From the NCBI RefSeq assembly GCF_000760295.1, contig NZ_JNBA01000024.1, forward strand, positions 1-64,000: a DNA stretch of 64,000 nt, in the 5' to 3' direction. Within the stretch, counting starts at the first letter, position 1. Every line of letters begins with the position of its first letter. Shown here piece after piece: positions 19,984-22,168 of the stretch. Source of the DNA: Prochlorococcus sp. MIT 0701 (GTDB lineage Bacteria; Cyanobacteriota; Cyanobacteriia; PCC-6307; Cyanobiaceae). Below the pieces are notes generated by a model. The model was not told the origin of the DNA, made no database searches, and saw only the letters and a list, made by a program, of their open reading frames with translations. The translations under genes were made by a program, and so were the position numbers.

Positions 19984-20385
19984 TTAGGCCACCTGGAACA
20001 TCCAGTCTTCATCTTGGCTGATAACAGGAGCTTCTCTATGGTTGGGTTCGGCCCATTGCAGCAACCTTAAAGCCAGTCGGAGATCGCCATCCATCCAGGC
20101 GCGGATGGCCATTGCGCGTCGCGGATCATAGAAACGTTGGCGCCTATACCAATCGAAGGCATGGGCATCCGATTTGTGACCATTACAGGAGAGACATGCC
20201 GGAACGCAGTTTTTAGTAATACTTAAGCCACCGCGACTGCGAGGCAAAATATGGTCAATTGATTCAGAAGTTTTGCCGCAATAGATACAACTTTGAGCAG
20301 TATAGTTGTGAAGGGATTTTCTCCATCTTCGGACACGTAATTTGGGGCAGAGATCTTCGAGGAAAACCGCGTCCCTATTGTGCAT
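19984..20385 (-). CDS. HNH endonuclease
   Basis: 133 residues. The core reads CIYCGK, then SIDHILPRSRGG (the first HNH His and metal site), then NCVPACLSCNGHKSD (the Asn and second zinc pair). The C-terminal 40 residues are Arg/Trp-rich. HNH proteins of this size are DNA nickases or nucleases, but many cyanobacterial copies have no known role. It is divergent from the HARP-like SNF2 helicase, 154 bases apart, which suggests a shared DNA-repair or genome-protection role (inference). Confidence 0.88.
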   Translation of the reverse strand: MHNRDAVFLEDLCPKLRVRRWRKSLHNYTAQSCIYCGKTSESIDHILPRSRGGLSITKNCVPACLSCNGHKSDAHAFDWYRRQRFYDPRRAMAIRAWMDGDLRLALRLLQWAEPNHREAPVISQDEDWMFQVA

Positions 20386-20539
20386 CCGAGTTCCTCGGTT
20401 TTGTGCAGTCTGCCGCGAATGCTCTTTGAGTCAATGTGTCTAAATATCTACTTTGGCTTGCTTTGCGCTGCTTTTTACAGTGGTTGCTTTCGCTCTTGCT
20501 AGTGAGGCAATGGGGCGTAAATTAGGTGTTCATTGATCA

Positions 20540-22168
20540 GTGAAGCTCACGCCTAAATCGTCTTCCAGCTGTTATTTGGGTCTGACTGCGGCTGGTTTGG
20601 TCAAGGTGGTGTTCCCTTTCGATGCCGTGACTCAGGCTCAGCTTCGCAAAGTGAAGCCGCGTGGAATTTGGCGTGGTACTCGCCAGGGCTGGGAATTTCC
20701 TTTGGTGGCGGCTCAACATTTGCAGAGGCAGTTTGGCTCACGTTTTTTGGTGCATGACGACTTGGCTCAGTGGCTGAGTTGGTTCGAACAGCCTTTGCCA
20801 CCGATGCCGCCTCATCGGGATCTAGTGGGCTATGCAGATCTTGAGGTTGTTTTGTCAGATGGTCGTAAACCTCTTCCTCATCAGCGCTCTGCAGTCCGTT
20901 GGTTATTGGCGCGGCGCGGTGCAGTCTTGGCTGATGAAATGGGTCTTGGTAAGACTCTTACCTCTCTTTTGGCGGCTCGCGCCATGGTGAGATGTGCTGA
21001 TGTACGGGTCATGGTGGTGGCGCCGGTGGGTCTTCATGACCACTGGCGCATGGAAGCTGCAAGTCTTGATTTGCCTGTGTGCATTCATAGCTGGGCTCGT
21101 CTGCCTAGGGAATTGCCGGCGGCGGGAACGCTTCTGTTGGTGGACGAAGCGCATTTCGGCCAGTCCATCAAGTCAAGACGAACTCAGGCTCTTTTAAGGC
21201 TTGCGCGGCATCCGCGTTTAAGGGCTATCTGGTTGCTCACCGGGACGCCGATGAAAAATGGTCGTCCTGACCAGCTTTATCCACTGCTGGCTGCCATTGA
21301 TCATCCTTTGGCTCGTGATCAACGTAAGTTTGAAGAGCGTTTTTGTCAGGGTCATTGGCGAGATCAAGGCGGTCAGCGACGCTGGCATTCACGTGGTGCG
21401 AGTGATCTTGATGCTCTAGGGAAGCTCACAGGGCCATTGGTGCTGCATCGACGCAAGCAGACGTTGCTTGGCTTGCCCCCAAAACGTCGTCAAGAGCATC
21501 GGGTTGTCCTTGCAGAGCCAGAGTCGCGTGGTTTTGACCATCGTCTAGCTCTTGTTACAGACGACTATCGCCATCGTGTTCAGCAGGGTTTGGTGCGTTC
21601 AGATGCGGAATCGCTAGCGGTGCTTACGGCTTTGCGCCAGATCGCAGCGGAGTTCAAGTTGCCAGCAGTGGAGACTGTTGTGGCAGCACTTCTTGCCGAG
21701 GGGCAAGCCGTTGTCCTTTTCAGCAGTTTTGTTGGCCCTTTGTTGCTTTTGCAGCAACGCTTAGGGGGTGAGTTGTTAACTGGTCGTCAGCGTCCAGGGC
21801 AGCGGCAGGAAGCTGTGAATCGTTTTCAATCAGGGATGAGTTCCCTTTTGTTGGCAACCTATGCAGTAGGCGGGCTTGGTTACACCTTGCATCGCGCCAG
21901 GCATGTGGTTTTGCTTGAACGTCACTGGACACCTGGTGATGTGGATCAGGCTGAGGATCGTTGCCATCGATTGGGGATGGATGGTGGACTAACGAGTCAC
22001 TGGTTCCAACTGGGTTTTGCAGATCAGTTGGTGGATGCTCTGATAGCAAGTAAGGCCGAGCGGATTGAGGTATTGCTTGGTTCTCGTCGTGTTGGACTCA
22101 AGCGTCAGCCTTTGCCAGTCATGTTGAGATGTTGCATGCAGGAGTCTTTACGCACGGTTAGTTCGTGA
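20540..22168 (+). CDS. SNF2-family helicase/translocase with HARP-like N-terminus
   Basis: 542 residues from a GTG at 20540. The two RecA lobes are complete: motif I DEMGLGKT (about 132-139), motif II VDEAHFG, motif III LLTGTPMKN and motif VI DQAEDRCHRLG. Before them, residues 20-66 (VVFPFDAV ... GWEFPL) match the spacing of the HARP domain that lets SMARCAL1 reanneal single strands. This points to an annealing translocase acting at stalled forks rather than a chromatin remodeler. Its end overlaps the convergent lipoprotein-like gene by 64 bases. Confidence 0.87.
   Translation: MKLTPKSSSSCYLGLTAAGLVKVVFPFDAVTQAQLRKVKPRGIWRGTRQGWEFPLVAAQHLQRQFGSRFLVHDDLAQWLSWFEQPLPPMPPHRDLVGYADLEVVLSDGRKPLPHQRSAVRWLLARRGAVLADEMGLGKTLTSLLAARAMVRCADVRVMVVAPVGLHDHWRMEAASLDLPVCIHSWARLPRELPAAGTLLLVDEAHFGQSIKSRRTQALLRLARHPRLRAIWLLTGTPMKNGRPDQLYPLLAAIDHPLARDQRKFEERFCQGHWRDQGGQRRWHSRGASDLDALGKLTGPLVLHRRKQTLLGLPPKRRQEHRVVLAEPESRGFDHRLALVTDDYRHRVQQGLVRSDAESLAVLTALRQIAAEFKLPAVETVVAALLAEGQAVVLFSSFVGPLLLLQQRLGGELLTGRQRPGQRQEAVNRFQSGMSSLLLATYAVGGLGYTLHRARHVVLLERHWTPGDVDQAEDRCHRLGMDGGLTSHWFQLGFADQLVDALIASKAERIEVLLGSRRVGLKRQPLPVMLRCCMQESLRTVSS

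What the first reader, a model, noticed from the sequence alone, without database searches (positions are those of the whole stretch)
19984..22168. HARP-like SNF2 translocase next to an HNH nuclease: the two halves of ZRANB3 as separate genes
The helicase has all SNF2 motifs and, ahead of them, a 45-residue segment (VVFPFDAV ... GWEFPL) spaced like the HARP domain of SMARCAL1. Its divergent neighbour is a compact HNH protein. Eukaryotic ZRANB3, the closest relative of SMARCAL1, joins an SNF2 motor to an HNH nuclease and acts on stalled forks. If the pair is conserved and works together, it would be a bacterial fork-remodelling unit, or a defence pair. The HARP call and the cooperation are inference.
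Basis: partly seen in the sequence, partly recalled or inferred. Interest (0 to 1): 0.6.

Follow-up and report, generated by a model that had tools for sequence, protein, structure and literature searches.

The report
Bacterial HARP-like SNF2 fork-remodelling motor
Ocean picocyanobacteria carry a small DNA motor with what looks like the same kind of fork-gripping domain as the human repair enzyme SMARCAL1, but the nuclease gene beside it has its own promoter and survives in many relatives without the motor, so the two do not look like one split enzyme.

Summary
In detail: an HNH protein (19984-20385, minus) lies divergent to a complete SNF2 translocase (20540-22168, plus). The HARP guess is supported, but indirectly. 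Pfam HARP misses the window protein. Its N-terminal profile matches HARP-bearing bacterial and phage SNF2 proteins far above shuffles, and these match the SMARCAL1 HARP crystal chain. AlphaFold gives a confident domain with HARP-like topology; its best structural matches are XPB N-terminal domains. The motor alone also groups with HARP-bearing SNF2 proteins. The likely job is SMARCAL1/UvsW-like remodelling of stalled forks, alongside RecG (inferred).

The 'split ZRANB3' idea is not supported. Within Cyanobiaceae the pair is adjacent in all 109 placeable genomes. But the HNH gene is more conserved, persists without the motor in about 24 near-complete reduced genomes, is duplicated in some, and has its own conserved promoter that remains after the motor is lost. 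No HNH gene or fusion was found beside HARP-SNF2 genes outside the family. Cooperation is not excluded: every near-complete motor-bearing genome examined also has the HNH gene, and one lineage lacks both.

The parts
20540..22168 (+). SNF2-family dsDNA translocase, 542 aa, with N-terminal HARP-like domain
20573..20734 (+). HARP-like domain (residues 12-65; beta-beta-alpha-beta-beta-alpha, short fifth strand after it)
   Evidence: profile chain; AlphaFold of the domain alone pLDDT 90.8; VIA-align best match XPB N-terminal domain, Z 6.4
20930..20956 (+). SNF2 motif I (Walker A) ADEMGLGKT
   Evidence: sequence; invariant columns in A2
21143..21154 (+). SNF2 motif II DEAH
   Evidence: sequence; conserved in A2
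21947..21976 (+). SNF2 motif VI QAEDRCHRLG
   Evidence: sequence; conserved in A2
19984..20385 (-). stand-alone HNH nuclease-fold protein, 133 aa; zinc Cys pairs and DH/N/CN residues conserved in 63 relatives
20429..20434 (-). -35 box (TTGACT) of the HNH gene's own promoter, conserved in relatives with and without the helicase
   Evidence: pattern read by eye
20407..20412 (-). -10-like hexamer (CAGACT; CATTAT or CAAAAT in relatives) of the HNH promoter
   Evidence: pattern read by eye
20386..20398 (.). 13-bp palindrome CCGAGttcCTCGG directly before the HNH start codon; operator or leader hairpin

Best explanation
The plus-strand gene encodes a minimal bacterial SMARCAL1-like enzyme: a single HARP-like domain that recognises branched or distorted DNA, fused to an SNF2 double-strand translocase. 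It most likely binds stalled or damaged replication forks and uses ATP to re-anneal and regress them, as SMARCAL1 and T4 UvsW do, as an accessory to RecG. The HNH protein next to it is a separate, more strongly conserved gene with its own promoter and a function that does not require the motor. Shown: the domains, the homology chain, the conservation pattern. Inferred: fork binding, regression, and the division of labour with RecG.
For: HARP chain: Cyanobiaceae N-terminal profile vs bacterial/archaeal/phage intermediates, P 3.4e-7, score 37.1 against a maximum of 16.3 in 200 column shuffles. Intermediates vs the SMARCAL1 HARP chain 4o66, P 4.5e-6, score 28.3 against a maximum of 17.0. The combined profile A4 has 4o66 as its best hit in the whole PDB, in register, but only at E 0.18; L107's N-terminus hits only 4o66 (E 1.3). 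Pfam HARP hits several intermediates below its cut-off at exactly this place. The N-terminal model has pLDDT 90.8 with a bb-a-bb-a layout, agreeing with the published HARP description (five-stranded sheet, two helices; PMC4666394). Best structural matches are XPB N-terminal domains (Z 6.4, 2.5 A over 62 of 75 residues). The motor without the N-terminus groups with HARP-bearing SNF2 proteins, apart from other bacterial SNF2. RecG is present in 13 of 14 genomes checked. HNH autonomy.
Against: The window protein itself has no Pfam HARP hit even at E 10, and the Cyanobiaceae-only profile does not find 4o66 in the PDB. 4o66 was not among the listed structure matches, and Z 6.4 is within the range of common arrangements. 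The helicase sits on a long branch, so its function may have shifted. No biochemistry exists; loss of the gene in reduced genomes shows it is dispensable there.
Confidence: 0.66

Rival explanations
1. The two proteins form a functional pair, a ZRANB3 in two pieces: the motor remodels the fork and the HNH protein nicks it.
For: Divergent adjacency in 109 of 109 placeable Cyanobiaceae genomes; no near-complete genome was found with the helicase but not the HNH; lineage G029 lacks both from an otherwise syntenic locus and is nested in the neighbour-gene tree.
Against: About 24 genomes at least 95% complete keep the HNH without the helicase; the HNH is duplicated in helicase-less genomes; its promoter is its own; gene order here is conserved in general, so adjacency is weak evidence; no HNH near HARP-SNF2 genes outside the family.
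Confidence: 0.15
2. A two-gene anti-phage defence system.
For: SNF2 and HNH proteins occur in known systems; PADLOC models of ZorD, DpdE, DrmD and PDC-M01B match the generic domains.
Against: The PADLOC matches are partial matches to the shared motor or nuclease core. The locus lies among housekeeping genes (efp, accB, pdxA, an aminotransferase, cbiD) and is widespread rather than patchy in the family; no mobile genes were seen beside it.
Confidence: 0.05
3. The motor is an SNF2 protein of another kind (for example a RapA/HepA-like recycler of RNA polymerase), and the N-terminal domain is an unrelated small fold.
For: The Pfam HARP cut-off is not met; the structural match is modest.
Against: Profile chain with shuffle controls and motor tree; only a weak RapA model match, 19 bits against a cut-off of 576.
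Confidence: 0.14

Closest known systems
SMARCAL1 (HARP), metazoan annealing helicase
   Same: SNF2 motor directly preceded by a HARP-type domain; the HARP chain 4o66 is the nearest solved relative of the extended N-terminal profile
   Different: One HARP-like domain instead of the two found in vertebrates; no room for an N-terminal RPA-binding region; bacterial; too divergent for the Pfam HARP model
ZRANB3 (AH2)
   Same: An SNF2 motor and an HNH protein are both present, as neighbours
   Different: Separate, divergently transcribed genes; no zinc finger found; HNH kept where the motor is lost
T4 UvsW
   Same: HARP-type N-terminal domain on a fork-regressing SF2 motor (PMC4666394)
   Different: UvsW was not compared here by sequence; from general knowledge its motor is SF2 but not of the SNF2 family
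phrog_62 phage DNA helicases, including HARP-bearing IMG/VR proteins L188, L309, L311, L316
   Same: Same motor family (window protein E 2e-60) and a recognisable HARP-like segment
   Different: Phage genes, about 26% identical for L188, with no HNH neighbour found
XPB N-terminal (damage-recognition) domain, 2fwr
   Same: Best structural match of the N-terminal domain
   Different: Only 8% identity over the aligned part; a different motor family

Membership tests
HARP-SNF2 (SMARCAL1-like) translocases | Complete SNF2 motor motifs | tested here: met
   Pfam SNF2-rel_dom and Helicase_C; invariant columns
HARP-SNF2 (SMARCAL1-like) translocases | HARP-type domain immediately N-terminal to the motor | tested here: met
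   Indirect: profile chain with shuffles and predicted topology; no direct coordinate comparison with 4o66 was possible
Pfam HARP (PF07443) | Match above the curated cut-off | tested here: not met
   No hit for the window protein; below cut-off in relatives. Therefore called HARP-like, not a Pfam HARP member
SMARCAL1 orthologue | N-terminal RPA-binding motif and two HARP domains (vertebrate form) | tested here: not met
   Only about 11 residues precede the single HARP-like domain
ZRANB3 | HNH domain fused C-terminally to the motor | tested here: not met
   The helicase ends about 30 residues after the motor; the HNH is a separate divergent gene
ZRANB3 | NZF zinc finger | tested here: not met
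   No such Pfam hit in the helicase
ZRANB3 | Sliding-clamp interaction motifs | not tested
   Beta-clamp motifs were not searched
HNH nucleases | HNH core residues (DH, N, CN) and zinc Cys pairs | tested here: met
   HNH and HNH_5 above cut-off; residues conserved in 63 relatives
Fork-regression enzymes | Fork-stimulated ATPase and fork regression | not testable with these tools
   Needs purified protein
Known anti-phage systems | Match to a system-specific component over its cut-off | tested here: not met
   NCBIfam matches are far below their cut-offs, PADLOC matches are partial core matches

The most novel reading that the evidence does not exclude
A widespread bacterial fork-remodelling unit: a HARP-like SNF2 translocase that depends on the neighbouring HNH protein to process regressed forks, functionally a ZRANB3 in two genes, with the HNH protein also having a motor-independent role.
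Probability: 0.13. Interest if true: 0.75.

Novelty: new variant of a known kind. Interest (0 to 1): 0.45.

Why it matters
A 2022 review states that there is no known homologue of SMARCAL1 in prokaryotes (PMC9368896). A compact HARP-like SNF2 enzyme that is widespread in Synechococcus-type cyanobacteria, with HARP-bearing relatives in phages and other bacteria, would give a simple bacterial model for how HARP domains steer a motor on forks. It also raises a testable question: why reduced Prochlorococcus-type genomes shed the motor while keeping RecG and the HNH gene.

Tried and rejected
Direct Pfam HARP search of the window protein and own genome: nothing. Cyanobiaceae-only N-terminal profile against the PDB: only chance matches. 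Foldseek of the N-terminal model: no E below 0.001; 4o66 not among the 50 rows shown, which does not exclude it. Fold search of the full model: only SNF2 motors in the rows shown, uninformative for the N-terminus. HNH in viral contigs by exact patterns: none; cyanophage HNH proteins are at most about 41% identical over part of the protein, so the HNH is not a recent phage gift. Many phage SNF2 hits showed no HARP-like segment by eye in the part inspected and were not used as HARP evidence. Several alignment calls failed on coordinates. The defence-system reading was considered and rejected (housekeeping neighbourhood).

Full report
WHAT IS THERE. The window comes from a Cyanobiaceae-type genome of 2.59 Mb; gene content and relatives suggest a Prochlorococcus MIT9313-type organism (own knowledge; contig lengths of relatives such as 1,688,963 and 1,751,080 bp recall strains MIT9211 and SS120). 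The helicase at 20540-22168 is a complete SNF2 protein and the divergent neighbour at 19984-20385 is a complete HNH protein. Adjacent genes are an epimerase-like protein, pdxA, accB and efp on one side and a small TPR-like protein, an AbrB-like membrane protein, an aminotransferase and cbiD on the other (names by reading the translations, apart from the epimerase).

IS THE N-TERMINUS A HARP DOMAIN. Direct Pfam search says no. Relatives say yes. The closest non-Cyanobiaceae relatives, from other families of the same phylum (L075, L076), are hit by Pfam HARP below its cut-off at exactly the same place, in a whole-genome search and in protein scans (E 0.003-0.013). So are a Solirubrobacteraceae protein (E 0.0019) and a viral one (E 0.0012). 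The Cyanobiaceae N-terminal profile aligns to these intermediates with P 3.4e-7, and the intermediates to the SMARCAL1 HARP chain 4o66 with P 4.5e-6. Column-shuffled controls, 200 each, never came near: 37.1 against a maximum of 16.3, and 28.3 against 17.0. A profile that includes the intermediates ranks 4o66 first in the PDB, in register, though only at E 0.18. An N-terminal HMM made from these sequences then picks out HARP-like segments in many phage SNF2 proteins, for example FPYDPKLVEKVKTIPGRRWDKERKAWAIP.

STRUCTURE. AlphaFold gives the full protein at pLDDT 85 and residues 9-83 alone at pLDDT 90.8: two strands, helix, two strands, helix, a short fifth strand and a further helix. A published description of HARP is a five-stranded sheet packed on two helices, and the same paper says T4 UvsW carries one (PMC4666394). 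The best structural matches are XPB N-terminal domains, Z 6.4, 2.5 A over 62 residues; from memory, the HARP structure paper (Mason et al. 2014) related HARP to the XPB damage-recognition domain and to UvsW. Z 6.4 alone would not be decisive, and 4o66 itself was not in the rows shown. A tree of the motor alone, without the N-terminus, groups the Cyanobiaceae proteins with the HARP-bearing bacterial and phage SNF2 proteins and apart from the ordinary bacterial SNF2 proteins, with a long branch to the Cyanobiaceae. I conclude HARP-like, probably homologous, about 0.8.

DO THE TWO GENES WORK TOGETHER. Helicase orthologues occur in most of the larger-genome genera of 201 Cyanobiaceae genomes. Where both positions were listed, the HNH is adjacent and divergent in 109 of 109. 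But gene order around the pair is conserved anyway. The HNH has the wider distribution and is more conserved (about 70-92% identity). By my count, about 24 genomes at least 95% complete keep the HNH and lack the helicase; in the six examined, the neighbouring genes are largely in place and the helicase, with the TPR gene, is gone. Some of these also carry one or two extra HNH paralogues elsewhere. One lineage, G029, lacks both genes between the epimerase and TPR genes and is nested among lineages that have both, so there the pair was probably lost together; genera g9 and g49 also lack both in the genomes seen.

REGULATION. The 154-bp gap contains a conserved block that belongs to the HNH gene: ACATTGAC(T/G), a spacer of 16 bases, a -10-like hexamer, then a palindrome CCGAG-N3-CTCGG immediately before the start codon. 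The -35 and -10 parts persist in genomes that lost the helicase. No comparably conserved element was seen on the helicase side. So the HNH looks like an independently expressed gene.

BEYOND THE FAMILY. In 244 genomes across the phylum, the helicase is found (E below 1e-30) only in Cyanobiaceae and three distant genomes, and the HNH (E below 1e-12) only in Cyanobiaceae plus one partial match. No HNH gene was found by profile or motif in the flanks of the HARP-SNF2 loci of those three genomes, of 80 bacterial SNF2 loci apart from loci of Cyanobiaceae origin (L108, L109), or of 30 phage HARP-SNF2 loci. The bacterial set holds few HARP-bearing proteins, and the HNH profile used is Cyanobiaceae-derived with a motif pattern as back-up, so a divergent HNH could be missed.

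MECHANISM AND NOVELTY. Most likely the helicase is a minimal fork remodeller: HARP-like domain for branched DNA, SNF2 motor for double-strand translocation, giving re-annealing and fork regression. RecG is present in 13 of 14 genomes checked, including helicase-less ones, so the enzyme would be an accessory. None of this has been tested at the bench. The HNH protein is an intact small nuclease-fold protein of unknown substrate. The novelty lies in the bacterial HARP-like SNF2 enzyme, since a 2022 review knows no prokaryotic SMARCAL1 homologue (PMC9368896); nine library searches found no paper describing one, which does not prove absence, as most subscription papers are not held.

Noticed in passing
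20386-20398 and relatives: A 13-bp palindrome (CCGAG-N3-CTCGG) sits between the HNH promoter and its start codon in most relatives, with matching changes on both sides in some; it overlaps an SD-like GAGG. It is degraded in the most reduced genomes. Possible operator or leader hairpin.
   Followed up: partly
L100-L104: Reduced genomes of genus g18 carry one or two extra HNH paralogues (58-69% identical) at other loci, most with a different shared upstream sequence (AAACTGTTATTATC).
   Followed up: partly
L292 (G029): This lineage lacks HNH, helicase and a full RecG match (only a partial match in a longer protein), at about 95% completeness; may be true losses or assembly gaps.
   Followed up: no
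L188, L303-L325: Phage SNF2 proteins (phrog_62 for L188) with HARP-like segments appear common; Pfam HARP scored the one tested (L188) below its cut-off.
   Followed up: partly
L108: A contig titled Bifidobacterium breve carries the Cyanobiaceae HNH-helicase pair: probably a mis-binned cyanobacterial contig.
   Followed up: no
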